From Stenotrophomonas maltophilia (GTDB lineage Bacteria; Pseudomonadota; Gammaproteobacteria; Xanthomonadales; Xanthomonadaceae): a stretch of DNA of 64,000 nt. Under the pieces are notes generated by a model. The model was not told the origin of the DNA. It saw nothing but the letters and a program-made list of their open reading frames with translations, and did no database searches. Positions 12,072 through 27,951 of this stretch are shown one piece after another. The position numbers and the translations under genes are program-made. Numbering within the stretch: the stretch's first letter is position 1; each line of letters opens with the position of its first letter. The stretch covers positions 186,001 through 250,000 of the forward strand of contig NZ_CP029773.1 of the NCBI RefSeq assembly GCF_003205835.1, read 5' to 3'.

Positions 12072-12075
12072 CGGG

Positions 12076-12984
12076 CTACCCTTCCGCGAACGCCTCACGC
12101 AACAGCCCGGCGAAATTGCGGATCAGCGGCGTCACCCCCTCACGGTGCCACGCCAGCTGCACTTCCGAATGCGCACCGGCATCGGCCAGCGCGACGAAGC
12201 GCGCGCCTTCCACCCGGATGTGATCACAGGACGACGGCAGGATCGCCGCACCGAGACCAGCAGCCGCAAGACTGATCAATGTCGATGCCTCACCGGCTTC
12301 CTGCACGATGCGCGGAGTGAACCCGGCAGCCGCACACAACGCGATCATGTGGTCATGGATGCCCGCACCGGCACTGCGCCGGAATGCTACGAACGGCTCC
12401 TGCGCGAAGTCGCGCAGCGACAGCGTGCCCTGTTTCGACAGTCTGCGCAGGGCAGGGTGATCGGCATGCACGATCAACGCCAACGGATCGACGAACAGGC
12501 TGTGCGCCACCAGTTCCGGCGGCAACGCGCGCTTGCGGATGATGCCCACGTCCAGGCTGCCATCGAGCAGCGCATCGATCTGCTGCAGGGTGTTCATCTC
12601 GCTCAGCTGCAGCCGCACCTGCGGGTACTGCTGGCGGTAGCGCAGGATCGAGCGCGGAATCTGTGGCGACAGCGGCGTCGCCCGGGTCAGCCCGATGCGT
12701 AGCTCACCCTGCTCGCCGCGCTGCGCGCGCTGCACCTCGTCCACCGCCGTTTCCACCTGCTGCACGATGGCGCGTGCACGTTCCTGCAGCAGCTCACCGG
12801 CAGGCGTCAGCTGCACACGACGATGGCTGCGCACGAACAGGCGCGCACCGATCAGATCTTCCAGCTGGCGGATCTGCTGGCTGAGCGGCGGCTGCGACAT
12901 ACCCAGCCGCTCCGCCGCCTGTCCGAAGTGCAGCGTATCGGCGACGGCAAGGAAGTAACGCAGATGGCGGAGTTCGATGGACAT
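12076..12984 (-). CDS. LysR-family transcriptional regulator
   Basis: A 302-residue LysR protein. The N-terminal winged helix-turn-helix is ELRHLRYFLAVADTLHFGQA followed by AERLGMSQPPLSQQIRQLED (residues 4-43). An effector-binding periplasmic-protein-like domain follows (about 90-300; LRIGLTRATPLSPQIPRSIL). It resembles BenM/CatR-type regulators. It is convergent with the MFS gene. Its start is only 9 bp from the stop of the Hsp70-like gene, and the best Shine-Dalgarno (AGGAGG, 12998-13003) lies inside that gene's last codons, so the island insertion appears to have replaced its native upstream DNA. Confidence 0.9.
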   Translation of the reverse strand: MSIELRHLRYFLAVADTLHFGQAAERLGMSQPPLSQQIRQLEDLIGARLFVRSHRRVQLTPAGELLQERARAIVQQVETAVDEVQRAQRGEQGELRIGLTRATPLSPQIPRSILRYRQQYPQVRLQLSEMNTLQQIDALLDGSLDVGIIRKRALPPELVAHSLFVDPLALIVHADHPALRRLSKQGTLSLRDFAQEPFVAFRRSAGAGIHDHMIALCAAAGFTPRIVQEAGEASTLISLAAAGLGAAILPSSCDHIRVEGARFVALADAGAHSEVQLAWHREGVTPLIRNFAGLLREAFAEG

Positions 12985-12993
12985 TGAAGACGG

Positions 12994-14736
12994 TCAACCT
13001 CCTCTCGACTGGAAACGATCTAGCCTATAGCCACCAATTCCAATTCCGGTGGACCGCAGGACACCCATCGAGGAAATCGTGTTCTGACGAGCGCCACCTA
13101 GTGAGACTGCAATTCGAGAGTAGTGATCCTCCAAGTCTGGATAGTCCTTGCTTAGCCACTCTGGAAAAGGCTTGGCAGCAATTACCGGGATGCGAATCCC
13201 GTGGGCAGTTACAAATCCTTCGGTGAGCTTCTTGGCCATGGGCAACATCGCACCGCCTCCGGTGAGCACGACAGTGAGGTATCTACTGGCGCTAGCTCTA
13301 ACCCACTCGATCCAGTCAGGGTGCGAAGATTCCAGTGTCTCAACTAGAGTCGTTCGAAGTGATTCCTCAAATGCACGAACGGTGTCTAATGCAAGGAACT
13401 CTTCAAGAGTGACTTCAATACTATCGCCATTCTTCAGTGTCACAGCGGCTACGCCACCGTTGAACAAGGACTCTTTGTAGTCACGAATGCTGCGCTCCAG
13501 ATCATGTGTTATGACTTTGAATTTCGGATCGCTTGAAGATACCCCTGCCTTCATCAATATATGGCCAAGCAGAAGCTTGTCGAGGTGGTTCCCGGCTTCC
13601 GTTATGCCCCGCGCTGTTTTATCAACCTCGCCTGCCGATGCATTGACGATCTCACCGTCTTCGTCAACAACAACATTCAGCCGATACAAGCTGAAGTCAC
13701 TAGTGCCGGCGCCGATGTCAACTACCAGTGCGAGAGAGTCCTGCGAGGCGTTCCAACTGAGCAGCGAGCCAGCAACTCCCAAAGGCTCTGTCACGCTGCA
13801 CTCAATGAATGAGTAAATTCGCGAATGGCTTCGGAGTTCTCGACAGGCATTCAAGAAGCTTTTAAGCGGTATGCCGCTATTCATTCTATGCTCAAAGGTG
13901 TCCGCTAAGATCTGCGCCTCGCCGAGCAATACCTTAAGTTTGGACTCAACAATTTTTGCGTTTGCCCTAGGGAAGCACGGCATGGCAAATCTCCGTGCAA
14001 AATTCCGGGAGACGTCAATGGCGTCGACTTCTTGCTTCAATGACTGATTGACAGCCCAAGTGAAGAAAGACAGGTAAGCCAGCACAACGTCTTCGTTCGT
14101 CAAGTCTTCAGAGGTCGGATTGAATGCGAATGGAACAGGCTCACCCAACACGCCTTCAGAGAGAGCGCGCTTGATGTTGTCCATGCGTAGATTCTTGCCC
14201 TCAGGCGCGAGCTGCGCCTGTTCCACTCCGCGCTGACCAAACCAAATTAGTCCGTCGCCATCAATGAAGACCGAAGATACGAGCATGATCTCGTCGATCT
14301 GTTCTTGGTCTCCTGGAACTCCGAGATGCAGCACTTGGACGTGCTCAAAGCCATTAGCATCGTCCTTCACGAAAGTCGCCTTAGACATGGCAGTCCCGAA
14401 GTCCATGCACACTCGATAGCTAGAGTCCGCGTCGGCCAAGTAGAGCGTAGATAGATTTAGCTCTACCGCTTCTTCAGGTTCGACCGCATCTGCGGTCGTT
14501 CCAGATGGGAATGCGATGACATTGGATTCCGGTGGGGGAGTAGAAGTATGCAGCAGGTTTGCTGCTTCGAGACGAGGCGCCTGTTGAGGTGGAACATCAG
14601 ATGAAAGTAGCTCAAGTGCATTCAGTTCGTTCTGAGTAATAACACCTGAGAGGCGGAACTTTCCGTCATCGCCGATCTCAATTCTTTCTCTCAAGTTGCC
14701 CAGAATAATTCTGGCCTTCGCGACGTCCATACTCAT
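12994..14736 (-). CDS. Hsp70/DnaK-like actin-fold ATPase without substrate-binding domain
   Basis: A 580-residue protein with the three nucleotide-binding motifs of the Hsp70/actin superfamily: phosphate-1 VCMDFGTAMSKATFV (109-123), phosphate-2 LVVDIGAGTSDFSLY (337-351) and adenosine LTGGGAMLPMAKKL (491-504). Only about 75 residues follow the last motif, so the DnaK peptide-binding domain and lid are missing. About 105 residues of acidic, Pro/Ser-rich sequence precede the ATPase core. Its ATG overlaps the stop of the upstream 481-residue gene by 4 bp, so the two are co-translated. GC content is clearly below neighbouring genes, and codon use is mixed, a sign of horizontal acquisition. Function is unknown; the paired arrangement suggests a two-protein system, perhaps defensive. 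Confidence 0.85.
   Translation of the reverse strand: MSMDVAKARIILGNLRERIEIGDDGKFRLSGVITQNELNALELLSSDVPPQQAPRLEAANLLHTSTPPPESNVIAFPSGTTADAVEPEEAVELNLSTLYLADADSSYRVCMDFGTAMSKATFVKDDANGFEHVQVLHLGVPGDQEQIDEIMLVSSVFIDGDGLIWFGQRGVEQAQLAPEGKNLRMDNIKRALSEGVLGEPVPFAFNPTSEDLTNEDVVLAYLSFFTWAVNQSLKQEVDAIDVSRNFARRFAMPCFPRANAKIVESKLKVLLGEAQILADTFEHRMNSGIPLKSFLNACRELRSHSRIYSFIECSVTEPLGVAGSLLSWNASQDSLALVVDIGAGTSDFSLYRLNVVVDEDGEIVNASAGEVDKTARGITEAGNHLDKLLLGHILMKAGVSSSDPKFKVITHDLERSIRDYKESLFNGGVAAVTLKNGDSIEVTLEEFLALDTVRAFEESLRTTLVETLESSHPDWIEWVRASASRYLTVVLTGGGAMLPMAKKLTEGFVTAHGIRIPVIAAKPFPEWLSKDYPDLEDHYSRIAVSLGGARQNTISSMGVLRSTGIGIGGYRLDRFQSRGG
12998..13003 (-). promoter_or_regulatory. LysR ribosome binding site inside the upstream gene
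   Basis: AGGAGG on the minus strand spans the last sense codons of the Hsp70-like gene, 13 nt before the LysR ATG at 12984. It suggests read-through from the island drives the regulator. Confidence 0.5.
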
Positions 14737-16178
14737 TTCTCAGGCTCCACCCGTGGTTTGACCAATGTCTTTTTCTTCCCACCAAACTCTTTATGTATGC
14801 CGTCTCGAACAACTCTTACGTTGCGTATGCCCGTGCGATGGCCGCCCTCCATGTCGTGCTCTATGGGGTTGTATTCAACCGAATCGCCAAGGAAGTCAGT
14901 CTTCGTCAGTTTTCGCATCCGAGCAAGACGCTCTGCCACCTGAGCAATGCTTTCATAGCCATTTGCGGCCCGTCGCACCGTCGCTGCCTGGATCGGGTCA
15001 AATGTCTCGAGGACTGGGACAACAGCGCGGTGCAGTTTCGCCATGTTGTCGCGATTTGCGTCTAGCTGAATCAGCAGTTCACCAATCTGCTGATCTTCAG
15101 TATTGCCAAGCTTGTGCTCGGCGGCACGCTCACTTTGGGGAACCCTACCGACCTTCATCCAGTAGTCTGATATCTCTGGATCGATATCAACGGCTTCCTT
15201 GAAATGAAGTTTGATGGCGACTGATATGAATGCTATCGAAGGCCAGCTTGCCTCCATAGCGCGAAGGATCTCTTTGTCCGTCCGATTCTGACGCGCTAGA
15301 ACGACGGCGGTCTCTAGCAGGTTCATCTGCACCTTGCGGATGTTCTGTGAGGATTCGAGGAATCGGGTCCACGGTCCAACTGTCAGGAGCTTCTTCCCAG
15401 ACTGAAGGACGCTGTAGGTTTCGGCATGAAGTGCGTGCGAGAAACGAAGTTCAATGACTCGAACGACGATGGATATGGCCGAGTCGATCGTTGCGTGTGC
15501 CGCGTCAATGTCGCTGCTGTAAGCGCCGCGAAGGAACGTGTCCATAAGAAACGAAATTGCCCTTCCTGGCTCAGTCCCAACTTCTCCATCATAGTTGCGG
15601 ACGACTTCAGCCAAAGCGTCAAAAATTCGCCTGACTCGTTTGATGCGAGAGTCGAGCTGTTCAATGCTTCTTACAATCGCCTGTGCTTCAGAGAGATGCG
15701 CAATGCAGCCGGATATGCTGCCAGCTTCAATCAATAGAGTCTTCAAAACCTCTTTGCGAGCGTTGTTTGCCGTATCGAGTGCAAGGGCTTCACGCGCGCA
15801 GTAGGAGGTAAGCCAGTTTGCGCCGGTGTGAGCAATAGCCCTGGCCGCGTACTCCTTCTCGTCGCCGTCGCCGAGTGTTTCAAGCGATCCGGGTTCATCG
15901 CTGAAGAGATCTGGGGCGCGCGAGAAGACCTCATTCTCCCTGCCTCTAGCGACCGCCGCGAGACGTCCCAAAATTGCGGAGGCAAATAGCTCATCTTCGA
16001 TTGGGCAGGTTGCGGCTAGGTCAAGAACAGTCGATACAATCTTGGAAAGGTTGTCCCCTCTAATCAACTGCTGAATCTGCATACGCTTCATGGACTCTGT
16101 GAGTAACAGATTCAATCCTTGAAGACTTTCGGCACCTTCGATGTTCCCTAGCTCTACTTCCATGTCTTTCGTCGTCAT
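14733..16178 (-). CDS. Uncharacterised helical partner of the Hsp70-like ATPase
   Basis: A 481-residue protein I do not recognise. It appears almost wholly alpha-helical, with no signal peptide or membrane segment, and alternates acidic and basic patches. The C-terminus is strongly basic (GGKKKTLVKPRVEPEK). It is upstream of, and overlaps by 4 bp, the Hsp70-like gene, so fixed stoichiometry is likely. GC content is low for this genome. Possible roles are a client, adaptor or effector for the ATPase, but no catalytic motif was found to choose between them. The ATG at 16178 begins MTTKDMEVELGNIEG. Confidence 0.75.
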   Translation of the reverse strand: MTTKDMEVELGNIEGAESLQGLNLLLTESMKRMQIQQLIRGDNLSKIVSTVLDLAATCPIEDELFASAILGRLAAVARGRENEVFSRAPDLFSDEPGSLETLGDGDEKEYAARAIAHTGANWLTSYCAREALALDTANNARKEVLKTLLIEAGSISGCIAHLSEAQAIVRSIEQLDSRIKRVRRIFDALAEVVRNYDGEVGTEPGRAISFLMDTFLRGAYSSDIDAAHATIDSAISIVVRVIELRFSHALHAETYSVLQSGKKLLTVGPWTRFLESSQNIRKVQMNLLETAVVLARQNRTDKEILRAMEASWPSIAFISVAIKLHFKEAVDIDPEISDYWMKVGRVPQSERAAEHKLGNTEDQQIGELLIQLDANRDNMAKLHRAVVPVLETFDPIQAATVRRAANGYESIAQVAERLARMRKLTKTDFLGDSVEYNPIEHDMEGGHRTGIRNVRVVRDGIHKEFGGKKKTLVKPRVEPEK

Positions 16179-17400: not shown

Positions 17401-19023
17401 ATGTCCGCCGTCGCTTCCGCTGTTCCCACCCCCGCCAGCAAGGCCACCCCCGGCATCGCCCTGGCGACCCGCGTGGCCGGCCAGGACACCCTGCTGCCGG
17501 CGCCGCTGCTGGCCCTGCTGGTGTCGCTGCACCGTGCGGTGGAACCGGGCCGGCAGGCACGGCTGCAGGCACGCCGCGAGCGCCAGGCATTCTTCGACCA
17601 GGGCGGCCTGCCGGACTTCCGCGGAGACACCACCGCGATCCGCAGCGGCGACTGGCGCGTTGCGCCGCTGCCGACCGCGCTGCAGGACCGCCGCGTCGAG
17701 ATCACCGGCCCGACCGACCCGAAGATGGTCATCAATGCGCTGAACTCCGGCGCCAAGGTGTTCATGGCCGACTTCGAGGATTCGACCTCGCCGACCTGGC
17801 GCAACCTGCTGGCCGGCCAGCAGTCGCTGGCCGCCGCGGTGCGTGGCGATCTCGAATACACCGCACCCAATGGAAAGCACTACGCCCTGCGCCCCTACGA
17901 CGAGCAGGCGGTGCTGATCGTGCGCCCGCGCGGCTGGCACCTGGACGAGAAGCACGTGCGCATCGATGGCCAGTTCATCGCCGGTGGCCTGTTCGACGCG
18001 GCGGTGTTCGCCTTCCACAACGCTCGCACCCTGCAGGCGAAGGATCGTGGCCCGTACTTCTACCTGCCCAAGCTGCAGAGCATGGAAGAGGCAGCGCTGT
18101 GGGAAACCGCGCTGTCGCACATCGAGGGCATGCTCGGCCTGCCGCACGGCCAGATCAAGGTGACGGTACTGATCGAAACGCTGCCGGCGGTGTTCGAGAT
18201 GGACGAGATCCTGCACGCGCTGCGTGACCGCATCGTCGGCCTGAACTGCGGGCGCTGGGACTACATCTTCTCGTACCTGAAGACCTTCCGCCGCCACGCC
18301 GACCGCGTGCTGCCTGAACGCGGCCAGGTGACCATGACCCAGCCGTTCCTGAAGGCGTATTCGGAGCTGCTGATCCAGACCTGCCACCGCCGCGGTGCGC
18401 ATGCGATGGGCGGCATGGCCGCGCAGATTCCGATCAACAACGATGCCGCCGCCAACGAGCAGGCGATGGCCCGCGTGCGCGCCGACAAGCTGCGCGAGGT
18501 CACTGCCGGCCACGACGGTACCTGGGTGGCGCACCCGGCGCTGATTCCGGTGGCGATGGCGATCTTCGACGAACACATGCCCGGTGCGAACCAGCACAGC
18601 GTGCTGCGCCAGGATGTGCGCGTGGGCCGCGACGAACTGATCGCGCGGCCGCCCGGCACCATCACCCGCGCCGGCTTCGAAGGCAACGTGGAAGTCTGCG
18701 TGCGCTATCTGGCGGCGTGGCTGGATGGCAACGGCTGCGTGCCGATCCACCACCTGATGGAGGACGCGGCCACCGCCGAGATCAGCCGCAGCCAGCTGTG
18801 GCAGTGGCTGCATACGCCGGGCCAGCAGCTGGACGATGGCACTGCGATCGATCTGGCGTTGCTGGATTCCACCCTCTCGCAGCTGCCGGCACGGCTGGGC
18901 GATACCGCCGCGCTGCCCGGTGGTGCACGCATCGGCGAGGCCATCACCCTGCTCGGCGAACTGAGCCGCAGCGAAGAACTGACCGATTTCCTGACCCTGC
19001 CGGCCTACGCGCGCATCGACTGA
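17401..19023 (+). CDS. aceB: Malate synthase A
   Basis: Malate synthase condenses glyoxylate with acetyl-CoA, the second glyoxylate-shunt step. The 540-residue product is the A type by length. It shows the N-terminal [20 protein letters not shown], the substrate region [33 protein letters not shown], and the active-site [20 protein letters not shown]. The conserved [10 protein letters not shown] follows, and the C-terminal catalytic Asp region is [22 protein letters not shown] 17401 has a typical N-terminus; a longer reading extends into the promoter. aceA follows 64 bp downstream, forming an aceBA operon. Confidence 0.97.
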
Positions 19024-19087
19024 TCGCCGCCCGCGTTTCCCGCCGTTTCCCTCCCCGCTGCACGCACGAACCGAACTGGAGAAAGAC

Positions 19088-20389
19088 ATGAGCAAGCTGC
19101 CCACTGCCGAACAGATCCAGCACGACTGGGATACCAACCCGCGTTGGGAAGGCATCCAGCGCAACTACAGCGCCGCCGACGTGGTGCGCCTGCGCGGCAC
19201 CGTCCACATCGAGCATTCGCTGGCCCGCCTGGGCGCAGAGAAGCTGTGGGCGTCGCTGCATGAGCGCGAGTTCGTCAACGCGCTCGGTGCATTGACCGGC
19301 AACCAGGCCATGCAGCAGGTCAAGGCGGGCCTGAAGGCGATCTACCTGTCCGGTTGGCAGGTGGCGGCCGACGCCAACCTGGCTGGGCAGATGTACCCGG
19401 ACCAGTCGCTGTACCCGGCCGATTCGGTGCCGGCGGTGGTCAAGCGCATCAACAACACGCTGCTGCGCGCCGACCAGCTGCATCACGCCGAAGGCAAGGA
19501 CGACATCGATTTCCTGCAGCCGATCGTGGCCGATGCGGAAGCCGGTTTCGGCGGCGTGCTCAATGCGTTCGAACTGATGAAGGCGATGATCGAGGCCGGT
19601 GCCGCCGGCGTGCATTTCGAAGACCAGCTGGCCTCGGTGAAGAAGTGCGGCCACATGGGCGGCAAGGTGCTGGTGCCGACCCGCGAGGCGATCGAGAAGC
19701 TCAACGCTGCGCGCCTGGCCGCCGACGTGCTGGGCGTGCCGACCCTGCTGGTGGCACGTACCGATGCCGAAGCCGCGGATCTGCTGACCAGCGACATCGA
19801 TGGCAATGACAAGCCGTTCGCCACCGGCGAGCGCACCGTGGAAGGCTTCTACAAGACCCGCAACGGCCTGGACCAGGCGATCAGCCGTGGCCTGGCCTAT
19901 GCGCCCTACGCCGACCTGGTGTGGTGCGAGACCGGCAAGCCGGACCTGGAGTTCGCACGCAAGTTCGCCGAGGCGATCCATGCCAAGTTCCCGGGCAAGC
20001 TGCTGGCCTACAACTGCTCGCCCAGCTTCAACTGGAAGAAGAACCTGGACGACGCCACCATCGCCAAGTTCCAGCGCGAGCTGGGCAGCTACGGCTACAA
20101 GTTCCAGTTCATCACCCTGGCCGGCTTCCATGCGCTGAACTACGGCATGTTCAATCTGGCCCACGGCTACGCGCGCCGCCAGATGAGCGCGTTCGTCGAG
20201 TTGCAGGAAGCCGAGTTCGAGGCGGCAGAGCGCGGCTTCACTGCGGTCAAGCACCAGCGCGAGGTCGGTACCGGCTACTTCGATGCCGTGACCCAGGCGA
20301 TCCAGCAGGGCCAGTCGTCGACCACTGCGCTGACCGGCTCGACCGAGGAAGAGCAGTTCCACGGCGGGCGCAGCGAACGCGCGGCGTGA
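19088..20389 (+). CDS. aceA: Isocitrate lyase
   Basis: Isocitrate lyase splits isocitrate into succinate and glyoxylate, diverting carbon from the TCA decarboxylations during growth on acetate or fatty acids. The 433-residue product has the signature [14 protein letters not shown] (catalytic Cys in KKCGH), [20 protein letters not shown], and the C-terminal [17 protein letters not shown]. Length matches the E. coli enzyme (434). GAGAAAG precedes the ATG. It is the second gene of the aceBA operon and is followed by a SMAG pair and a strong hairpin. Confidence 0.97.
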
Positions 20390-20393
20390 TGCG

Positions 20394-20469
20394 GTAGTGC
20401 CGGCCGCTGGCCGGCAACCCGTCGATGTTCCCTGAGTCCACGTGGTTGCCGGCCAGCGGCCGGCACTAC
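20394..20469. repeat. SMAG-like GTAG palindrome pair
   Basis: GTAGTGCCGGCCGCTGGCCG and its inverted complement ending CACTAC, starting 4 bp after the aceA stop. Confidence 0.9.
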
Positions 20470-20508
20470 CGGGCCACAGAGCGATCAGGGTGGCCAGGGA
20501 AGGGCCAG

Positions 20509-20544
20509 ACAACGCCGGCCGGTCGGGGGACCTGCCGGCGTTGT
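20509..20544 (+). terminator. Hairpin terminator candidate after aceA
   Basis: An 11-bp stem, ACAACGCCGGC / GCCGGCGTTGT, followed by a short T-rich stretch. It may end the aceBA transcript. Confidence 0.6.
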
Positions 20545-20797
20545 TGTATCGATGGAACAGCCGTGAACGCGGGCAGCGTCAATCCGGCGCACCCCCAGGC
20601 CCTGCAACTTGGCCGAAAGCCCGTGAAGATGGCCATCGGATTGATCCAGCAGGACTTTTGTGCGGACAGGCATGCCCAGAACGGGTCACCACGCATCTTC
20701 ACATCAGAGAAGTGCGTCCGAAGGCTCAAAATGAGATAGGGCGCACACTTTAAAGCGGTGCTATGCTCCGCGGCTCACCAGGGGACGCTGGCGGCGG

Positions 20798-21847
20798 GTG
20801 CAGGGAATGACCGGCAGGGGTGCGGCCGAGAACAGTGATGTGACGTCAGGTATCGCCCGGGTGGCGATGGCCGAGATCGTGCACGCGCTGCTGTCCGCTG
20901 CCGAGGTCGCATTGTTCGCCAGATATGCCCGTCCATGCAAGCTTCATGCCGGACAGTGGTTGTTCCAGCGTGGCCATCGCGGCGAACGGATGTACGTGAT
21001 CCTCGAAGGCCAGATCGAACTGGACTTCGGCGAAGATCTGGTGATCAAGACCCTCGGCCAGCATGAGTTCTTCGGTGAGCTTGGCCTGCTGGTCGGCGAC
21101 CACCTGCGCAGCGCCAGTGCCCGCGCGCTGGCCGACTGCGAAGTGCTCGAGCTGGGCCCGGCCGACTTCCATCGCCTGGTCGAATCCGATCCTGGCCTGG
21201 TCGCCTATTTCCTGCGCCGCACGATCATGCGCGTGCTGACCAACGAGCAGGCGCTGATCAGCCAGCTGCGCCGGCGCAACCATGATCTGGAAACCGCGCT
21301 GGACAACCTGTACATCACCACCCACCAGTTGACCCACACCCGTGAACTGGTGCGTACCGATGAACTGACCGGGCTGCATAACCGTCGTGGCCTCACCCTG
21401 TACCTGCAGGAATGCCGCGCCGATGGCGACGGGTTGCCGCAGGCACTGCTGCTGATCGACTGCGACCGCTTCAAGCAGATCAACGACCGCCATGGCCACC
21501 AGGCCGGTGACCGCGTGCTGCAGAGCATGGGCAACATCCTGCGCTCGATGGCCGGTGAACAGGACCTGGCCTGCCGCCTTGGTGGCGATGAGTTCTGCCT
21601 GATCCTGCGCCGTGGCAACCACGAGATCGTGCAGCACGCGGCCGAGTTCATCCTCAGCGCGGTGCATGGCCTGCTCGAGCGCAGCCACGGTACGCCGCAT
21701 GTCAGCCTGGTCAGCATCGGTGCCAGCCTGCTGGCGCCGGAGGCAGGCTGGAGCGAGTGGTATGCCAGCGCGGACCGCGCGCTGTACCAGGCCAAGCGCG
21801 ATGGCGGCAACTGCCTGCGCTGGGTGGATGCAGCGGATACACCTTGA
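20798..21847 (+). CDS. cNMP-binding domain plus GGDEF diguanylate cyclase
   Basis: A 349-residue cytosolic signalling protein. Residues about 30-145 form a CRP-like cyclic-nucleotide-binding domain (GERMYVILEGQIELDFG, FFGELGLLVGDHLRSASARA). A helical linker follows, then a GGDEF domain (about 185-345) with an intact active site RLGGDEFCLIL (GGDEF at 262-266) and DCDRFKQINDRHGHQAGDRV. The RxxD inhibitory site expected just before GGDEF is replaced (GEQD), so product inhibition is probably absent. Start is uncertain: GTG 20798, ATG 20807 or ATG 20867. It ends 16 bp before the class III cyclase gene, so the two are one operon. A cNMP made by that cyclase could be its ligand, which is inference. 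Confidence 0.87.
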   Translation: MQGMTGRGAAENSDVTSGIARVAMAEIVHALLSAAEVALFARYARPCKLHAGQWLFQRGHRGERMYVILEGQIELDFGEDLVIKTLGQHEFFGELGLLVGDHLRSASARALADCEVLELGPADFHRLVESDPGLVAYFLRRTIMRVLTNEQALISQLRRRNHDLETALDNLYITTHQLTHTRELVRTDELTGLHNRRGLTLYLQECRADGDGLPQALLLIDCDRFKQINDRHGHQAGDRVLQSMGNILRSMAGEQDLACRLGGDEFCLILRRGNHEIVQHAAEFILSAVHGLLERSHGTPHVSLVSIGASLLAPEAGWSEWYASADRALYQAKRDGGNCLRWVDAADTP

Positions 21848-21863
21848 TCGGGAGAGTCAGGCG

Positions 21864-24332
21864 ATGAATGGCGACAACGGAACGTCGACGCCGCACAACC
21901 AGCAACTGCGCGCGCTGTTGTTCACGGATCTGTGCGACTCCCTGCTGCTGGTTGAACGTATTGGCGATGTCGCTGCCGCCGAACTGTTCCAGGAACACGA
22001 CCGGCTGGTATTGGCGCTGCAGCAGCGCTGGAACGGCCAGTTGATCGACCGTTCCGATGGATTGTTCATGCTGTTCGAGCGCCCGATTGATGCGCTTGGG
22101 TTCGCCCTGGATTACCAGCGTGGGCTGCAGCCGCTGGGGCAGTCGCGTGATCTCCGGTTGCAGGCGCGGGCCGGGTTGCACGTGGGTGAGGTGATTCTGT
22201 GGAACAACAGCGCTGAGTCCGTTGCGCTGGGGTCCAAGGCCGTGGAGGTGGAAGGTCTGGCGAAGCCGATGGCGGCGCGCCTCATGCAGCTGGCACGACC
22301 GGGCCAACTGCTGTTGTCGGCAGCGGCCGAATCGCTGGTCCGGCGTGCAGCCTCCCAGCTTGGCGAGCCGGCCGACCGGTTGTACTGGAAGTCATTCGGC
22401 CGCTGGCGCTTCCGTGGTGTGGCGCAGCCGATGGAGGTGATCGGCGTCTCGGCGGTCGGCAAGGCAGCGCTGCGACGGCCGCGTGCGAGTGACAAGGCCA
22501 GGCCGGATGTCCCGTTCTGGCGTCGCCCGATGGCGATGGCGGCGCAGGTAACGCTGGTGGCAGCCTGCGCAATGGGCTTGTGGTTGCTGACTCGTCCACA
22601 ACCGGCCATCGCCTTTGCCGAACGCGACTGGGTGGTGATCGCGGAGCCGCGCAACCTGACTGGCGATCCTCTGCTGAGCGAGTCGATCAACCAGGCGTTC
22701 CGCATCAGCCTGGAGCAGTCGCGGTATGTGAACGTGCTGAGTGACCTGAAGGTGCGCGACACCATGCAGCGCATGCTGATCAGTCCTGGGGCCGGGCTGG
22801 ACCGGGGGGTTGCCAGCGAGGTGGCCCAGCGTGATGGTGCACGCGCGGTGCTGGCGCCTTCGGTCCTGGAGGTGCATGGCCGCCTGCGGGTGGCGGTCGA
22901 TGTGATCGATCCGTCGACCGCGGCCACCGTCTACACCGTGCATGTCGATGGCAAAGGCCTGGACTCGCTTCTGGCATCCACCGATGAAGTGGTGGGGCGT
23001 CTGCGCGAGCGTCTTGGCGAAGGCGGTATGGAGATTGATCGACATTCGGTGAATCTGCCGCAGGTGGCGACGTCCAGCCTGGACGCGCTGCGTGCTTACG
23101 CCGCAGGCATCAGGGCGCTGGACCGGCGCCAGACCGATGAGGCGCTGGGCTTTCTCGCGCAGGCGGTGAAGGTCGACCCGGAATTTGCGATGGCCCATGT
23201 GGCAATCATGCGCATCCACTGGATGCGCGGTGAAAGCCGCATGGCACTGGATGCCCATGCGCGTGCGCAGGCATTGCGGGCGCGACTGACGCCGCGCGAT
23301 GCACTGTACCTGGACGGATGGGCAGGGCAGGCCAGCGATCTGCCGGAGGCTGACATCGCCCGACGCTGGAAGCTGTTGACCGACCTGTATCCCGACTACC
23401 ACGGTGGGTATGTCAATCGGGCGCTGGCGTTGTCCGGAATGGGGCGCTACGCAGAAGCGGTGACCGTGGTGCAGCCGGCGCGGGTTCCGCAGGCATGGGC
23501 CCGCAGCCACACGCTGGATTTCTCAGGACGGTTGAAGCTGGCTGCGGGCAACACCAACGGTGCGGTTGCGGATTTCCGCATGGCCGGTGATGTCGGAGGC
23601 TGGAGAACCAGCGCCAACCTGGCTACGGCGATGGCCGTACTCGGAGACTGGAGCGCTGCACGTGCCCAGTTGGTGGGCGTGTCGGCCGATGATTTCGGCG
23701 CCCGCATGCAGCAGGCAGCGGTGCTGGTCGATCTCGGTGAGCTGGACAAGGCCGAAGAGGTTGCCCGATCACTGCAGGCGCAGTGCAATGAGCCGGCCCT
23801 TTGCCGGCTGGCGTCGGCCTGGCGCGCCAGCATTGCCGGCATGGCAGGAGAGCGGTCGGATCCCGCAGCGAGCCGCAAGCGGATTGGAGAGGCGTTGGCC
23901 GACCTGCGCCAGCAGCCCAGCGGCAATCTGCACACCCGGCAGTTCATGGTTCTGGGCCTGATTCGCCTGGCTCAGCGCGAAGGCGTGGACGTGACGCCCC
24001 AGTTGCGCTTGGCGCGTCGCGCGATCGACCTCAGGAGCGACCCACGCTCGCGCCAGTTGCTGGACATCATCGAAGCCACCCGCGAGTTGCATGCCGGGCA
24101 GGCGGTCGCGGCCGTCGAGCGCCTGCTGCCGTGGGCCGACGGCACGGAGTTGTACCAGTTGCACGTGGCGCTGCGCGATGCAAGGCATGCCTCGGGAGAT
24201 TCCGCGGCGGCCGCTGCAGAAGCACGCTGGCTGGCCGCGCATCGCGGTCGTGCCTATGCCGAGGATTCCGGCAATTACATCCTGCAGGCGCTCAATGTCC
24301 GTGACAGCCGCGCACCGCTGGGCGCGGACTGA
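21864..24332 (+). CDS. Putative peptide-modification-system cyclase (class III cyclase, TM, TPR-like)
   Basis: An 822-residue protein matching what I know as the putative peptide modification system cyclase family (TIGR04510 type). Residues 15-155 are a class III nucleotidyl cyclase domain with both metal-binding aspartates (D22 in LFTDLCDS, D65 in DRSDGLFMLF) and GLHVGEV. The transition-state NxxxR motif reads PMAAR (135-139), so the Arg is kept but the Asn is lost. One membrane segment lies at about 224-243. Beyond it are a TolB-N/CadC-like segment (VIAEPRNLTGDPLLSESINQ) and a long TPR-like helical region (about 385-800), probably periplasmic. GGGAGA precedes the ATG. Its stop is 10 bp from the stop of the convergent precursor-like gene. 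Confidence 0.85.
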   Translation: MNGDNGTSTPHNQQLRALLFTDLCDSLLLVERIGDVAAAELFQEHDRLVLALQQRWNGQLIDRSDGLFMLFERPIDALGFALDYQRGLQPLGQSRDLRLQARAGLHVGEVILWNNSAESVALGSKAVEVEGLAKPMAARLMQLARPGQLLLSAAAESLVRRAASQLGEPADRLYWKSFGRWRFRGVAQPMEVIGVSAVGKAALRRPRASDKARPDVPFWRRPMAMAAQVTLVAACAMGLWLLTRPQPAIAFAERDWVVIAEPRNLTGDPLLSESINQAFRISLEQSRYVNVLSDLKVRDTMQRMLISPGAGLDRGVASEVAQRDGARAVLAPSVLEVHGRLRVAVDVIDPSTAATVYTVHVDGKGLDSLLASTDEVVGRLRERLGEGGMEIDRHSVNLPQVATSSLDALRAYAAGIRALDRRQTDEALGFLAQAVKVDPEFAMAHVAIMRIHWMRGESRMALDAHARAQALRARLTPRDALYLDGWAGQASDLPEADIARRWKLLTDLYPDYHGGYVNRALALSGMGRYAEAVTVVQPARVPQAWARSHTLDFSGRLKLAAGNTNGAVADFRMAGDVGGWRTSANLATAMAVLGDWSAARAQLVGVSADDFGARMQQAAVLVDLGELDKAEEVARSLQAQCNEPALCRLASAWRASIAGMAGERSDPAASRKRIGEALADLRQQPSGNLHTRQFMVLGLIRLAQREGVDVTPQLRLARRAIDLRSDPRSRQLLDIIEATRELHAGQAVAAVERLLPWADGTELYQLHVALRDARHASGDSAAAAAEARWLAAHRGRAYAEDSGNYILQALNVRDSRAPLGAD

Positions 24333-24342
24333 CAGCGCAGCA

Positions 24343-24627
24343 TCAGCTGTCGGCGCCGGCTTCGAAGAAGTGCGGCAGGACGAAGGCGCCGCAGGACTGC
24401 AGGTGCTGGTTCAGGGCCTCGGCAGTAGCGGCAAAGGCTTCCTTGCTGGCCAGCGCGTCCACTGGAGCGCACATCGAGCCATCGGCATTGGGAGCAATGC
24501 CCAGACCCTGCAGCGCAAGGCTGGGAGAAGCGGCGAAGGCACTGCGGAAGCCGTCATCGCTCTGCAGCAGCGACAGTACCTGGGCGGCTTGTGCAGCCGT
24601 AAGCAGGGTCTTGTCGGAAGTACTCAT
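24343..24627 (-). CDS. NHLP-related RiPP precursor-like peptide
   Basis: A 94-residue peptide with a leader resembling nitrile-hydratase-like/Nif11 RiPP leaders. LTAAQAAQVLSLLQSDDGFR is followed by SAFAASPSLALQGLGI, the LxxLxxDxxFRxxFxxxPxxALxxxGI pattern at residues 9-44. The C-terminal part (45-94) has two cysteines (53, 79), several Ser, Ala and His, and ends FFEAGADS. This matches the modification-target family I associate with the cyclase and SagB-like dehydrogenase on either side (TIGR04509 type). It is convergent with the cyclase and divergent from the dehydrogenase. Cleavage site and modified residues cannot be read from sequence. Confidence 0.83.
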   Translation of the reverse strand: MSTSDKTLLTAAQAAQVLSLLQSDDGFRSAFAASPSLALQGLGIAPNADGSMCAPVDALASKEAFAATAEALNQHLQSCGAFVLPHFFEAGADS

Positions 24628-24711
24628 GGTGATCGCGCTGGCCGTTGCAGGTAGGGTTCTCTTGTTTCGGCCTGTTGCAGGGAAAGTTTAGCCTCAGCGC
24701 GCCCTGGGGCG
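24628..24711. promoter_or_regulatory. Divergent promoter region between precursor and dehydrogenase
   Basis: The 84-bp gap separates the precursor (minus strand) from the SagB-like dehydrogenase (plus strand), so both promoters or a shared control region lie here. AT-richer patches (TTCTCTTGTTT, AAAGTTTAG) could supply promoter elements. Confidence 0.45.
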
Positions 24712-25911
24712 ATGCATGGCATCCTGCGCGTCCCGCTCCACACCGATGCCTCCATGCAGATCAGACGTTGCTCCATCGTGATGTTCGAGCCCCGTGCGGA
24801 AGTGGCGCTGGATCTTGACCTGCTGCTCAAGGGAGAGGCCGGCCTGGGCACCACGATGCAGTGGTACGCGCTGGCCGCGCACCTTGATGCGCCGCTCAGG
24901 GTGGAGGCTGGCGATGTGGAGCTGCTGGGCCGTATCGTGCCCGACGCCTGGGTCGACGCGGCGCACAGCGACATTGGCGAAGCCGATCTCGACCGGTTGC
25001 TGCACAGTGGTCTGCTGATCAGTGACGACCCAGCCTACGCTGGGCACCGCCAGCGAGACCAGCGTGTACGCGATGCCAGCTGGTGGCCGCTGTCGGCGCT
25101 GGCCCATCGGCTGGGGCGCTGGAACGGCATCGACAGCGCGCAGCAGATGCGCGAAGAGAAACTTGTCACGGCGCAGGACCTGCGACGTAGATTCGGTCCT
25201 CCACCACCAGCCGTGATGCCCCCCGCCACCGAGCCGCTGGCTCTGCCCCTGCCAGAAGACGAGCCGCGTGATCTGCTCCTTGCGAGGCGCGCGACCTGCC
25301 GCAACTTCGATACCGCACGATCATTGCCGTTGCGCATGCTCGCCCAGGTGTTCAAGCGGACGGTGAAGGCGCACGCCGTGGTGGAGCCCGGCGAAGACAT
25401 GGCCTTTCTGAAGAAGCATGTTCCTTCCGGTGGAGGCCTGCATCCGCTGGAAACCTATGTCATCGCCGTGGACGTCGATGGCCTTGCCGCAGGTGTCTAT
25501 CACTATCACGCGCTGGAACACACCTTGCGGCCGCTGCCGGTGGATGGCACCGGTCTTCGCGGCAGCGTGCTGACGCTGCTGGCTGGACAGGACTGGTTCG
25601 CGGCTGCGCCACTGCACATCATCCAGGTTGCGCGGTTCCCGCGAAGCTTCTGGAAGTATCGCAACCATCCCAAGGCCTATCGGGCAGTGCTGCTGGATGC
25701 AGGCCACCTGTCACAGCAGTGGATGTTGTCTGCCACCGAACTTGGGCTGGCGGCCTACGTCACCGCTGCCATCAATGAAGTGGATATCGAAGCCCTGCTG
25801 GGCCTGGATGGCATCGACGCCAGTCCGGTAATGATGTGTGGATTGGGGTGGCGGGCAGCGGACCAGACCACCAGCGAGTTTGATCCACTGCAGCGGGTCT
25901 GGCCGGGTTGA
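24712..25911 (+). CDS. SagB-type putative peptide maturation dehydrogenase
   Basis: A flavin (FMN) dehydrogenase of the nitroreductase superfamily, SagB branch, which in azole-forming RiPP systems oxidises azolines. The 399-residue product has an N-terminal helical domain (1-150) with no clear match. A Pro-rich linker (GPPPPAVMPPATEP) leads into the nitroreductase domain (about 185-399). Visible there are LLARRATCRNFDTARSLPLR, the SagB signature PSGGGLHPLETYVIAVDVDG, VYHYHALEHTLRPL, and LDAGHLSQQWMLSATELGL. It fits the SagB-related maturation dehydrogenase family (TIGR04511 type). Start is 24712 or 24754 (MQIRRCSIVMFEPRAEV). No YcaO or cyclodehydratase gene is seen nearby, so the reaction is unknown. 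Confidence 0.85.
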   Translation: MHGILRVPLHTDASMQIRRCSIVMFEPRAEVALDLDLLLKGEAGLGTTMQWYALAAHLDAPLRVEAGDVELLGRIVPDAWVDAAHSDIGEADLDRLLHSGLLISDDPAYAGHRQRDQRVRDASWWPLSALAHRLGRWNGIDSAQQMREEKLVTAQDLRRRFGPPPPAVMPPATEPLALPLPEDEPRDLLLARRATCRNFDTARSLPLRMLAQVFKRTVKAHAVVEPGEDMAFLKKHVPSGGGLHPLETYVIAVDVDGLAAGVYHYHALEHTLRPLPVDGTGLRGSVLTLLAGQDWFAAAPLHIIQVARFPRSFWKYRNHPKAYRAVLLDAGHLSQQWMLSATELGLAAYVTAAINEVDIEALLGLDGIDASPVMMCGLGWRAADQTTSEFDPLQRVWPG

Positions 25912-25950
25912 GGCGTGGCGCGCCGTTGCCAGCACGCCACTGCCACTTCA

Positions 25951-27951
25951 TCACGCCGCTTCGAAGTCCACCAGCACCGCACCGTCACCCACCTGGTCGC
26001 CGGCCTTGGCGCGGTAGCCCTTCACCGTGCCGTCTGCCGGTGCCTGCAGGGTGTGCTCCATCTTCATTGCTTCCAGCACCACCAGCGGCGTGCCGCGCTT
26101 GACCTCGGTACCGGCCGCGACCAGTGTCGCGACGATCTTGCCCGGCATTGGTGCCAGCAGGCTGCCCGCGTCGGCCACGGCGTGGTCCGATTCGCCCACC
26201 GGGTCGTGCAGGGTGAAACGGTGCTGGCCATCGGCACCGAACAGATACAGCTGGTCGCCTTCGCGCAGCAGCTGCAGCTGCCAGCGGCGGCCGTCCAGCT
26301 GCACTGACAGGCTGCTGCCCTTGGCACTGCCGAGCACCGTGGCCGGTGCAGCAGCATCGCACTGCACGCGCCAGCCATCGGCCTGCACCCATACCTTCAG
26401 CGTGTGCTTGCGTTCGCCCTGCTGCAGCGGCAGCACGCGCGGTGCCGATGCGCCAAGGCGCCAGCCATCCTGTGCCTGCCACGGCGAATGCGGATCGCGC
26501 GCGTCGGTGCTGGCGCCGCCCGTGCTTGCAACCGCAGCCACCGCAGCCAGCTGCCACAGGGCATCATCTGTGTCGCCCACTGCATTCAACGCGACCTGCT
26601 CGCGCTCGATCAGCGCGGTATCCAGCTTGGCGTGCGCGAACGAATCGGTGTTCACCAGCCGGCGCAGGAAGCCGGCATTGGTGGTCACGCCCACCACCTG
26701 GCAGTCGGCCAGGGCCTGGCTCATGCGGCGCAGTGCGGCGTCGCGGTCCACGTCCCAGACGATCAGCTTGGCAATCATCGGATCGTAGTACGGCGTGATG
26801 CTGTCGCCTTCTTCGACGCCGGTATCCACGCGCACATGGGCCGACGGCGTCGGCAGGCGCAGGCGGCGCAGGGTGCCGGTGGAGGGCAGGAAGCCCCGAT
26901 CGGCATCTTCGGCATACAGGCGTGCTTCGATGGCGTGGCCGTGGATCGCCAGCTGTTCCTGGCGCAGCGGCAGCGGCTGGCCCGAGGCCACGCGCAGCTG
27001 CCACTCCACCAGGTCGGTGCCGGTGATGTACTCGGTCACCGGGTGCTCGACCTGCAGGCGGGTGTTCATTTCCATGAAGTAGAAATCGCCGTCCGGGCCG
27101 GCGATGAACTCCACCGTGCCGGCACCGACGTAGCCCACCGCGCGCGCGGCATCGACCGCCGCCTTGCCCATTGCAGCACGACGTTCTGCGCTCATGCCCG
27201 GGGCGGGTGCTTCTTCCAGCACCTTCTGGTGGCGGCGCTGCACCGAGCAGTCGCGCTCGAACAGGTAGACCGCCTCACCGTGGCGGTCGCCGAACACCTG
27301 GATCTCGATATGGCGCGGGCGCTCGACATACTTCTCGACCAGCACGTGGTCGTTGCCGAACGCCGAGGCCGCTTCGCGCTGGCAGCTGGCCAGCGCATCG
27401 ACGAAGTCCTCGCTGCGTTCGACCCTGCGCATGCCCTTGCCACCGCCACCGGCGCTGGCCTTGATCAGCACCGGGTAGCCGATGTCGTCGGCCTGTGCGC
27501 GCAGGAAGTCCGGCGCCTGCTGGTCGCCGTGGTAGCCCGGGGTCAGCGGTACACCGGCCTTGGCCATCAGCGCCTTGGCCGCGCTCTTGTCGCCCATCGC
27601 GCGGATGGCGCTGGCCGGCGGCCCGATGAAGGTGATGCCGGCGGCGGCGCAGGCATCGGCGAAGTCGGCATTCTCGGACAGGAAGCCGTAGCCGGGGTGG
27701 ATCGCCTGCGTGCCGGTCAGGCGTGCGGCGTCGAGCAGGGCATCGCTGCGCAGGTAGCTCTCACGCGCGGCGGCAGGTCCAATGTGGATGGCTTCGTCGG
27801 CCAAGCGCACGTGGCGCGCGTTGCGGTCGGCATCGGAATACACCGCCACGGTGGCGATGCCGAGGCGGCGGCAGGTGGCGATGACGCGGCAGGCGATCTC
27901 GCCGCGGTTGGCGATCAGGACTTTGGTGAACATGGCAACAGGCTCGGTCAT
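25951..27951 (-). CDS. liuD: 3-Methylcrotonyl-CoA carboxylase, biotin-carrying alpha subunit
   Basis: This subunit carboxylates its own biotin, which the beta subunit uses to convert 3-methylcrotonyl-CoA to 3-methylglutaconyl-CoA in leucine breakdown. The 666-residue product has a biotin carboxylase N-terminus (TKVLIANRGEIACRVIATCR), the ATP-grasp glycine-rich loop (KASAGGGGKGMRRVE), the EMNTRLQVEHPVTE active-site motif, and a C-terminal biotinyl domain with LEAMKMEHTLQAPADG (the biotinyl Lys in MKM). It starts 8 bp after the beta-subunit stop. ATG 27933 is an alternative start. Propionyl-CoA carboxylase is excluded mainly by the isovaleryl-CoA dehydrogenase and beta-subunit neighbours. Confidence 0.93.
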   Translation of the reverse strand: MTEPVAMFTKVLIANRGEIACRVIATCRRLGIATVAVYSDADRNARHVRLADEAIHIGPAAARESYLRSDALLDAARLTGTQAIHPGYGFLSENADFADACAAAGITFIGPPASAIRAMGDKSAAKALMAKAGVPLTPGYHGDQQAPDFLRAQADDIGYPVLIKASAGGGGKGMRRVERSEDFVDALASCQREAASAFGNDHVLVEKYVERPRHIEIQVFGDRHGEAVYLFERDCSVQRRHQKVLEEAPAPGMSAERRAAMGKAAVDAARAVGYVGAGTVEFIAGPDGDFYFMEMNTRLQVEHPVTEYITGTDLVEWQLRVASGQPLPLRQEQLAIHGHAIEARLYAEDADRGFLPSTGTLRRLRLPTPSAHVRVDTGVEEGDSITPYYDPMIAKLIVWDVDRDAALRRMSQALADCQVVGVTTNAGFLRRLVNTDSFAHAKLDTALIEREQVALNAVGDTDDALWQLAAVAAVASTGGASTDARDPHSPWQAQDGWRLGASAPRVLPLQQGERKHTLKVWVQADGWRVQCDAAAPATVLGSAKGSSLSVQLDGRRWQLQLLREGDQLYLFGADGQHRFTLHDPVGESDHAVADAGSLLAPMPGKIVATLVAAGTEVKRGTPLVVLEAMKMEHTLQAPADGTVKGYRAKAGDQVGDGAVLVDFEAA

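What the first reader, a model, noticed from the sequence alone, without database searches (positions are those of the whole stretch)
20798..25911. RiPP maturation locus joined to second-messenger enzymes
Four neighbouring genes make a coherent set: cNMP-binding/GGDEF protein, class III cyclase with TPR-like region, convergent NHLP-leader peptide, and divergent SagB-type dehydrogenase. I recall the last three as co-occurring families (TIGR04510, TIGR04509, TIGR04511) whose product and chemistry were never established. No YcaO, radical SAM, lanthionine synthetase, protease or exporter is seen in the flanks, so how a flavin dehydrogenase and a nucleotidyl cyclase mature a peptide is open. One possibility is that the cyclase is itself the modifying enzyme (for instance nucleotidylation); another is that it only signals.
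Basis: partly seen in the sequence, partly recalled or inferred. Interest (0 to 1): 0.85.

Follow-up and report, generated by a model that had tools for sequence, protein, structure and literature searches.

The report
Swappable peptide, modifier and receptor-cyclase cassette
Next to the counterparts of a known cyclic-GMP signalling gene pair, close relatives among Xanthomonas-type bacteria carry very different versions of a small peptide gene, its likely modifying enzyme and the predicted sensing half of the cyclase, which change together, so the peptide is the likely missing signal that switches this receptor cyclase on.

Summary
The four genes are real and the three recalled models match far above their cut-offs (TIGR04510, TIGR04509, TIGR04511). 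The first two genes are the counterparts of XC_0249/XC_0250 of Xanthomonas campestris, shown in 2013 to be a cGMP-activated diguanylate cyclase and a GTP-specific guanylate cyclase (PMC3770947), so the cyclase is very unlikely to be a peptide-modifying enzyme. New here: the locus has a conserved and an interchangeable half. Between close relatives the flanks, the GGDEF gene and (in Xanthomonas) the cytoplasmic cyclase domain stay mostly 90-100% identical, whereas the predicted periplasmic TPR sensor, peptide and dehydrogenase fall to about 20-50%; identity returns to 92-94% just after the dehydrogenase stop. In 22 Xanthomonas loci sensor, peptide and dehydrogenase fall into the same six types; output domains do not. 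Peptide and TPR rarely separate, even where dehydrogenase and leader do. This is the genetic signature of peptide-pheromone/receptor systems (agr, ComQXPA). Best reading: a dehydrogenase-matured peptide is the cognate ligand of a receptor guanylate cyclase feeding cGMP into c-di-GMP. Binding, maturation and export are untested; no exporter or YcaO is linked.

The parts
20798..21847 (+). cNMP-binding domain + GGDEF diguanylate cyclase; orthologue of XC_0249 (output module, conserved half)
   Evidence: PF00027 and PF00990; best solved match 5h5o, 149 bits, 73 of 129 identical; all seven cGMP-contact residues of XC_0249 present at a constant offset; GGDEF motif kept in 186 of 186 relatives
21864..24332 (+). 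receptor-type class III cyclase, TIGR04510; orthologue of XC_0250
   Evidence: 1023.9 bits against cut-off 400; the six residues mutated in XC_0250 are present
21891..22403 (+). cytoplasmic cyclase (CHD) domain, residues 10-180 (output module)
   Evidence: alignment A1; aspartates D22 and D65 in 199 of 199
22533..22589 (+). predicted transmembrane helix, residues 224-242, positive side in the cytoplasm
   Evidence: one such segment at residues 195-290 in 232 of 235 cyclase sequences (7 of them with a second TM-like stretch elsewhere), K/R excess before it in all 232
22626..23015 (+). alpha/beta (TolB-like, recalled name) predicted periplasmic domain, residues 255-384
   Evidence: model
23061..24326 (+). 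TPR solenoid sensor, residues 400-821, the part of the cyclase that varies most
   Evidence: model; fold matches to TPR proteins; identity by segment
24343..24627 (-). precursor peptide, TIGR04509 (94 aa); leader about residues 1-49 (24481-24627), likely core about 50-94 (24346-24480)
   Evidence: 64.7 bits against cut-off 34; alignment of 123 relatives; leader/core border inferred
24754..25911 (+). SagB-type FMN dehydrogenase, TIGR04511, with an N-terminal domain before the nitroreductase domain (25282-25851)
21864..25911 (.). interchangeable specificity cassette; left edge within about 21751-22000, right edge within 25751-26000 against near relatives of another type
   Evidence: window against L047 in 250-base bins: 92-99% from 17501 to 21501 (83% at 20501), 44-84% in the bins 21751-25751, 94% at 26001, 84% at 26251, 91-99% in the next fourteen bins

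Best explanation
The locus encodes the orthologues of a published cyclic-GMP to cyclic-di-GMP relay, the predicted periplasmic sensor of its cyclase varies as one interchangeable cassette with a small peptide and a SagB-type dehydrogenase, and the peptide, likely matured by that enzyme, is the likely cognate signal of this receptor cyclase. Shown: the four genes and their conservation, one hydrophobic membrane segment in the cyclase, the edges of the cassette, and the co-segregation of sensor, peptide and dehydrogenase. Published for XC_0250 and XC_0249: GTP to cGMP, and cGMP activation of the GGDEF protein. Inferred: the NHLP-like leader is read by the dehydrogenase, which oxidises the core without a YcaO partner; the product leaves the cytoplasm by an unlinked exporter; the TPR solenoid binds the core and changes the activity of the cyclase domain; alleles define communication groups (pherotypes) that respond to their own peptide.
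For: Orthology: the X. cannabis protein is identical to 5h5o at 122 of 129 positions, and 5h5o fits all seven XC_0249 contact residues at one offset; the X. arboricola cyclase L150 is 886 aa like XC_0250 and carries D41, D71, L73, A150, L157, A161 at the paper's own numbers. Topology. Edges: X. arboricola L150 against L159, 91-98% in the bins 4751-9251 (68 and 85% in the bins 7501 and 7751, just before the GGDEF gene), 34-76% in 9501-13251, 94-98% in 13501-15001, 87-93% further out; the dehydrogenase ends at 13216. Concordance: 22 Xanthomonas loci, six types at 70% identity, adjusted Rand index with peptide types 1.0 for TolB, TPR and DH, 0 for GGDEF and CHD; partial Mantel peptide-TPR r 0.98, peptide-CHD -0.01. 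65 loci of the window's genus: 21 DH and 28 peptide types, Rand index 0.84 (DH), 0.83 and 0.74 (TPR), 0.68 (TolB), 0 (GGDEF, CHD); of 187 pairs with GGDEF at least 95% identical, 129 differ in DH type. Trees: types I and III rejected as clades on GGDEF+CHD, the X. arboricola group rejected on sensor and on DH. Finest case: L224 matches one group in TPR 451-800 and peptide core, but is nearer the other group in leader and DH. Over 155 loci, peptide and TPR are discordant in 4 of 11,935 pairs, peptide and DH in 41.
Against: No binding, maturation or secretion was tested. The sensor is predicted periplasmic but the peptide has no recognised signal sequence and no exporter is linked; in this genome the only C39 matches are a stand-alone open frame of 267 aa and a 27-residue fragment. 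The cassette is one physical tract and the 3' ends of cyclase and peptide genes abut, so a single recombination event carries both; co-segregation alone does not prove contact. The counts depend on thresholds that differ between TPR and DH, and pairs are not independent. The cyclase domain alone restored biofilm in X. campestris, so input from the TPR part is not required for output. In the window's genus the CHD also diverges between types (79% against 97%), and the peptide-CHD partial correlation is 0.53. The clade of the X. arboricola group is only 89/86 supported, and one type (T0) is not rejected as a clade (p 0.117).
Confidence: 0.6

Rival explanations
1. Competition rather than communication: the peptide is a narrow-spectrum antimicrobial (RiPP bacteriocin) and the variable TPR half is its matching immunity or detection part, so types mark kin-killing groups.
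For: Polymorphic producer/recognition cassettes also fit toxin-immunity loci; loss of an NHLP-clan small protein beside a SagB-type enzyme, without cyclodehydratase, lowers antibiotic activity of Pseudomonas sp. Os17 (PMC7726476, passages).
Against: No separate immunity gene or exporter recognised in the flanks; the recognition part is fused to a cyclase whose orthologue signals; the conserved half is a published signalling relay.
Confidence: 0.15
2. The TPR half is a maturation or export scaffold: it holds the precursor (or dehydrogenase) rather than sensing the product, and cGMP output reports biosynthesis.
For: TPR modules commonly hold other proteins (recalled); TPR co-varies with the peptide core as a docking partner also would.
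Against: The predicted topology puts TPR on the other side of the membrane from the dehydrogenase; the part of the peptide that co-varies is the C-terminal half, not the leader.
Confidence: 0.1
3. Linkage only: the region is a recombination hot spot or lies beside a selected site, and the three genes vary together merely because they are neighbours.
For: The cassette is contiguous and its edges lie at gene or domain borders where homology resumes.
Against: Flanks on both sides are mostly 84-98% identical up to the edges in the seven different-type pairs profiled, with the left edge at or inside the cyclase gene and the right edge at the dehydrogenase end each time; at least 32 changes for 21 types on the GGDEF tree; dehydrogenase separates from peptide in 41 pairs but TPR in 4.
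Confidence: 0.1
4. One reading: the cyclase is itself the peptide-modifying enzyme (for instance nucleotidylation).
For: Co-occurrence of cyclase and peptide; NCBI's name for the family.
Against: The XC_0250 cyclase domain makes cGMP from GTP and had no adenylate cyclase activity; the cyclase domain is the part that does not co-vary with the peptide in Xanthomonas (r -0.01); the cGMP effector gene sits upstream.
Confidence: 0.03

Closest known systems
XC_0249/XC_0250 cGMP pathway of Xanthomonas campestris (An et al. 2013, PMC3770947)
   Same: Same gene pair: cNMP-GGDEF effector and class III guanylate cyclase with TPR region; the tested residues are present.
   Different: The main text has 0 occurrences of peptide or dehydrogenase as words, calls the TPR region uncharacterised and names no input signal in the parts read; a 2019 review repeats 'uncharacterized function'. 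I saw no description of the polymorphic cassette there; supplements not seen.
ComQXPA pherotypes of Bacillus (PMC4408185, passages seen) and agr groups of Staphylococcus (recalled)
   Same: Peptide, its modifying enzyme and the sensor half of a receptor are hypervariable together (comQXP polymorphism and pherotypes seen in passages; conserved output half recalled).
   Different: Receptor is a guanylate cyclase with a TPR sensor, not a histidine kinase; modifier is a SagB-type flavoenzyme; Gram-negative hosts; communication groups not yet shown.
TIGR04509/04510/04511 set (NCBIfam)
   Same: Model matches above cut-off.
   Different: The models carry only putative names; the GGDEF partner and the cassette behaviour are not part of them.
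Os1348 cluster of Pseudomonas sp. Os17 (PMC7726476, passages) and NHLP peptides (Haft et al. 2010, PMC2887384, passages)
   Same: Small NHLP-clan protein with a SagB-type enzyme and no cyclodehydratase (Os17); weak match to the Os17 domain model, 19 bits against a cut-off of 40.
   Different: The Os17 cluster has acetyltransferase and peptidase-like genes and no cyclase in the table seen; classic NHLP peptides have a Gly-Gly site and an associated ABC exporter, neither recognised here.
Animal receptor guanylate cyclases for peptide hormones (recalled)
   Same: Would be a membrane receptor that turns a peptide signal into cGMP.
   Different: Unrelated sensor and organism; ligand binding here is inferred.
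Rap/RRNPP peptide-pheromone receptors

Membership tests
XC_0249/XC_0250 cGMP to c-di-GMP relay | cNMP + GGDEF protein with the cGMP-contact residues | tested here: met
   7 of 7 residues at a constant offset in the window; in 186 relatives E91 kept in 185, H99 in 185, N146 in 172, E147 in 186
XC_0249/XC_0250 cGMP to c-di-GMP relay | class III cyclase with TPR region and the six residues needed by XC_0250 | tested here: met
   6 of 6 in the window; 886 aa and identical numbering in X. arboricola L150
XC_0249/XC_0250 cGMP to c-di-GMP relay | GTP to cGMP activity of this very protein | not testable with these tools
   needs protein; shown in print for XC_0250 only
TIGR04509/04510/04511 peptide set | scores above curated cut-offs | tested here: met
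TOMM (azole RiPP) pathway | YcaO cyclodehydratase with the dehydrogenase | tested here: not met
   no YcaO match in this genome; 1 of 13 genus members searched has one
TOMM (azole RiPP) pathway | SagB/McbC-type FMN dehydrogenase with Lys-Tyr pair | tested here: met
Classic NHLP precursor (TIGR03793) | NHLP leader model and Gly-Gly cleavage site | tested here: not met
   TIGR03793 not listed at E<=10 for the window peptide; no conserved Gly-Gly column by eye in 123 peptides; GG occurs in the last 60 residues of 26 of 123
Peptide-pheromone specificity cassette (agr/ComQXPA-like) | sensor half, peptide and modifier vary together behind a conserved output half | tested here: met
Peptide-pheromone specificity cassette (agr/ComQXPA-like) | peptide activates only its own receptor type | not testable with these tools
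   needs bench work
Peptide-pheromone specificity cassette (agr/ComQXPA-like) | dedicated processing/export gene | tested here: inconclusive
   no exporter among the 19 of 22 largest flanking groups scanned; an S9 peptidase gene follows in 24 of 80 loci; unlinked genes not excluded
RRNPP receptors | peptide-binding TPR receptor fold | tested here: inconclusive

The most novel reading that the evidence does not exclude
Bacterial receptor guanylate cyclases for ribosomal peptides: in Xanthomonadaceae a family of dehydrogenase-modified peptides acts as pherotype-specific pheromones that bind periplasmic TPR sensors of transmembrane guanylate cyclases, setting cGMP and through it c-di-GMP; dozens of alleles swap between species as peptide + modifier + sensor cassettes.
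Probability: 0.5. Interest if true: 0.95.

Novelty: new variant of a known kind. Interest (0 to 1): 0.86.

Why it matters
The cGMP pathway of Xanthomonas was described in 2013 with no input signal named in what I read, and its cyclase carries a TPR region that a 2019 review still calls uncharacterised. A peptide ligand encoded next door would supply that input, give an orphan RiPP family its first function, and add a receptor type (guanylate cyclase with TPR sensor) to peptide signalling in Gram-negative bacteria. The polymorphism makes it testable at once: matched and mismatched peptide/sensor pairs already exist in nature.

Tried and rejected
Cyclase as nucleotidylating enzyme: set aside because the orthologue is a demonstrated guanylate cyclase and because, in Xanthomonas, its catalytic half is the part that does not follow the peptide. 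YcaO acting from elsewhere: none found in this genome. A linked exporter or protease: open frames of 100 aa or more in the held flanks of the 80 named-record loci were grouped; of the 22 largest groups I scanned one member of each of 19 against Pfam (two last groups and one of 126 aa not scanned). Found: isocitrate lyase (45 loci) and malate synthase (38) upstream; downstream an S9 peptidase (24 loci, 18 of them Xanthomonas), biotin carboxylase (19), a Mg-chelatase-type ATPase (18), a Na/H exchanger (7) and others; nine frames had no match, several of them antisense to known genes. No peptide exporter among them; the S9 peptidase lies outside the variable tract and could still act on the peptide. 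Export by a C39-ABC protein: none in this genome; genus members that have one carry it elsewhere (nearest, G174, about 42 kb away). A specific structural relative of the sensor: only generic TPR matches. The cyclase domain itself was poorly modelled (pLDDT 28-83). The N-terminal domain of the dehydrogenase is inside the alignments to ThcOx and BmdC, which I recall as carrying RRE-like domains, but few listed rows cover it, so leader recognition there stays unproven. Promoters and terminators: no promoter-like site, terminator-like sites at chance. Papers: the three models have no paper under their numbers in the library (one hit, an unrelated Vibrio paper); XC_0250, XC_0249 and two recalled XCC numbers occur in 7 papers, of which I read parts 1-2 of 4 of PMC3770947 plus term finds, and two passages of PMC8042644; the other five were seen only in the listing. 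A search joining Xanthomonas, RiPP, pheromone, pherotype, cyclic GMP and Stenotrophomonas gave one paper on a Bacillus genome. Subscription journals and preprints are not held.

Rows dropped before counts. L242 (broken GGDEF and short cyclase) left out of 66 loci of the window's genus; of 27 loci named Xanthomonas, 21 were used plus unnamed L099; left out were L188 and L197 (broken genes) and L136, L123, L124, L125 (distant group); 155 loci with exactly one full-length copy of each gene and not repeated, out of 238 locus entries (92, 80 and 66), which include the same genome fetched twice. One search counts 235 sequences without removing such repeats. The scan found 472 relatives and kept the best 80. 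Of 91 genus genomes 90 hold the GGDEF gene at E<=1e-60; I fetched 60 of them in addition to the six already held. Results against the reading are listed in the Against line.
Full report
What is there. The window holds four genes in the order GGDEF> cyclase> peptide< dehydrogenase>. The upstream protein has PF00027 and PF00990. Named relatives of the locus include Xanthomonas, Lysobacter, Pseudoxanthomonas, Luteimonas and Stenotrophomonas. That the window itself is a Stenotrophomonas is my inference; the 'genus' sets below use the tool's genus code.

Conservation. In 149 genomes of the family the models are over cut-off in 91 (04511), 93 (04510) and 93 (04509) genomes; the GGDEF protein is found in 93 at E<=1e-40, beside the cyclase in 86 by coordinates. 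In 92 loci chosen for their cyclase (91 fetched plus the window), 84 have the GGDEF gene, 91 a peptide and 90 a dehydrogenase. At class level the dehydrogenase model passes its cut-off in 5 of 369 genomes, four of them of the window's family and one of another family of the order. In the window's genus 90 of 91 genomes have the GGDEF gene, and all 66 loci read have the four genes in the same order, 10 with extra peptide or cyclase copies and one (L242) with broken genes.

The first two genes are a published relay. An et al. 2013 (PMC3770947; parts 1-2 of 4 read, terms searched in the rest) showed that XC_0250 makes cGMP from GTP and that XC_0249 binds cGMP and then makes more c-di-GMP. The main text has no occurrence of peptide or dehydrogenase as words. 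Orthology is firm: X. cannabis, whose gene sits in the same four-gene locus, is identical to the solved domain 5h5o at 122 of 129 positions, and 5h5o carries all seven XC_0249 cGMP-contact residues at one constant offset, as does the window protein. The X. arboricola cyclase L150 is 886 aa, the length given for XC_0250, and has D41, D71, L73, A150, L157, A161 at exactly those positions; the window has the same letters at 35, 65, 67, 144, 151, 155. I did not fetch X. campestris itself.

Topology. Of 235 cyclase sequences, 232 have a hydrophobic helix at residues 195-290 (225 only this one, 7 with a second TM-like stretch, 3 none), with more Lys/Arg before than after it in all 232. So the cyclase domain is predicted cytoplasmic and the rest periplasmic. 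The model (mean pLDDT 77.6) shows an alpha/beta domain and a long TPR solenoid, most ten-residue blocks of it above 79; the cyclase domain is poorly modelled.

The interchangeable cassette. Comparing X. arboricola strains L150 and L159 in 250-base bins, identity is 91-98% in the bins 4751-9251 except 68 and 85% in the two bins just before the GGDEF gene, falls to 34-76% in the bins 9501-13251, is 94-98% in 13501-15001 and 87-93% further out; 9501 lies near cyclase codon 176 and the dehydrogenase ends at 13216. The window against L047 shows the same: 92-99% from 17501 to 21501 (83% at 20501), 44-84% in the bins 21751-25751, 94% at 26001, 84% at 26251 and 91-99% in the next fourteen bins. Seven different-type pairs were profiled (three, four), and all have these edges; pairs of the same type (L150 with L156, the window with L203) show no such drop. 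Thus one tract from the cyclase gene to the dehydrogenase stop differs inside an otherwise ordinary chromosome stretch next to the isocitrate lyase and malate synthase genes.

Statistics. Twenty-two Xanthomonas loci: clusters at 70% identity number 1 for GGDEF, CHD and linker, and 6 for TolB, TPR, peptide and dehydrogenase, with identical membership (adjusted Rand 1.0); partial Mantel correlations with the peptide, given GGDEF, are -0.01 (CHD), 0.27 (linker), 0.95 (TolB), 0.98 and 0.97 (TPR), 0.97 (dehydrogenase). Sixty-five loci of the window's genus: 2 clusters for GGDEF and CHD, 15 linkers, 19 TolB, 24 and 30 for TPR halves, 28 peptides, 21 dehydrogenases; Rand index with the peptide 0 (GGDEF, CHD), 0.37 (linker), 0.68 (TolB), 0.83 and 0.74 (TPR), 0.84 (dehydrogenase); partial Mantel 0.53 (CHD), 0.59 (linker), 0.85 (TolB), 0.92 (TPR), 0.81 (dehydrogenase). 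Of 187 pairs at least 95% identical in GGDEF, 129 carry different dehydrogenase types; their means are GGDEF 97, CHD 79, TPR 34 and 24, peptide 33, dehydrogenase 47; the 58 same-type pairs have CHD 97, TPR 90 and 80, peptide 88, dehydrogenase 94. On a GGDEF+CHD tree of Xanthomonas the X. arboricola group is one clade with modest support (89/86) and types I and III are rejected as clades (p 6e-57, 1e-87); on dehydrogenase and sensor trees types I, II and III are clades and the X. arboricola group is rejected (p 0.001, 6e-33). In the window's genus 21 types need at least 32 changes on the GGDEF tree (20 would be the least); types T1 and T2 are rejected as clades, T0 is not (p 0.117). The window is of type T2; of its five nearest rows on that tree two are T2, two T0 and one T5.

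Which part goes with which. Within dehydrogenase type 0, two groups of 4 and 7 loci are 94-97% alike in GGDEF, CHD, TM-TolB and dehydrogenase and 88% in peptide 1-51, but 49-84% in cyclase 451-800 and 66% in peptide 52-97. L224 is a natural recombinant: its peptide core is 95% like the first group and 67% like the second and its TPR blocks follow the first, while leader (91 against 85%), dehydrogenase (98 against 95%) and CHD (98 against 94%) are nearer the second. Over 155 unambiguous loci of the family (11,935 pairs), peptide and TPR are discordant in 4 pairs (peptide >=70 with TPR <40, or peptide <50 with TPR >=60), peptide and dehydrogenase in 41 (peptide >=70 with DH <60 in 1, peptide <50 with DH >=70 in 40). 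Correlation with the peptide is 0.82 for TPR, 0.72 for dehydrogenase, 0.54 for TolB, 0.39 for GGDEF; partial correlation peptide-TPR given dehydrogenase 0.61, peptide-dehydrogenase given TPR 0.31. The thresholds differ because dehydrogenases are more alike throughout, and pairs are not independent. The peptide gene lies between both neighbours, so adjacency alone does not explain the difference; but in the window the gap to the cyclase is shorter (10 bp against about 126 bp) and the core-coding end faces the TPR-coding end, so linkage remains a partial alternative.

Open gaps. Export route, the actual modification, ligand binding, and whether types define communication groups are all untested.

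Noticed in passing
window 20392-20471: A perfect 28-nt inverted repeat (arms 20392-20419 and 20444-20471, 24 nt apart) upstream of the GGDEF gene; looks like the GTAG-type repetitive elements recalled for Stenotrophomonas.
   Followed up: partly
L257, L258, L259, L261, L262, L175: Second cyclase copies in tandem downstream of the dehydrogenase; in L257, L262 and L175 the second copy is shorter (614-641 aa) and lacks the cyclase domain, a sensor-only protein.
   Followed up: partly
L215, L216, L230, L238, L244 downstream of the dehydrogenase: Extra peptide genes without their own cassette, most of them only 40-62% like any peptide outside the same pair of loci; may be remnants of displaced cassettes or additional signals.
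   Followed up: partly
L170:13478-15640 and 23 other loci, mostly Xanthomonas: A prolyl-oligopeptidase (S9) family gene follows the dehydrogenase at a median of about 230 bp, in the conserved flank; candidate for processing or removing the peptide.
   Followed up: partly
L188 (X. phaseoli), L197 (X. vasicola), L242: Loci with the cyclase and/or dehydrogenase (L242: GGDEF and cyclase) in pieces or shortened, so the system seems to be lost in some lineages.
   Followed up: no
L085, L091, L093, L098, L099, L107, L109, L115, L117, L118; named L164, L172, L183: A second architecture with the dehydrogenase on the same strand as the peptide; seven of these ten unnamed loci and all three named ones... 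have short peptides ending in a hydrophobic stretch plus two residues, such as WVVFCR or GIILFKV.
   Followed up: partly
L110, L108, L116: Multi-peptide arrays: ten (L110), five (L108) and five (L116) peptide genes with five, three and one dehydrogenase genes, without a GGDEF gene in the stretch.
   Followed up: no
L168: A record titled Bacillus subtilis strain SK7B5 holds this Xanthomonadaceae locus, on a contig of the same length (108265) as G215:C8 of the window's genus: apparently a mislabelled assembly.
   Followed up: no
PMC3770947 residue numbering: The paper's first metal aspartate D41 maps to the GD of ERxGD (D35 here, 196 of 199); the canonical position (D22 here, recalled) is invariant in 199 of 199, so the paper's assignment of catalytic residues may be shifted.
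   Followed up: partly
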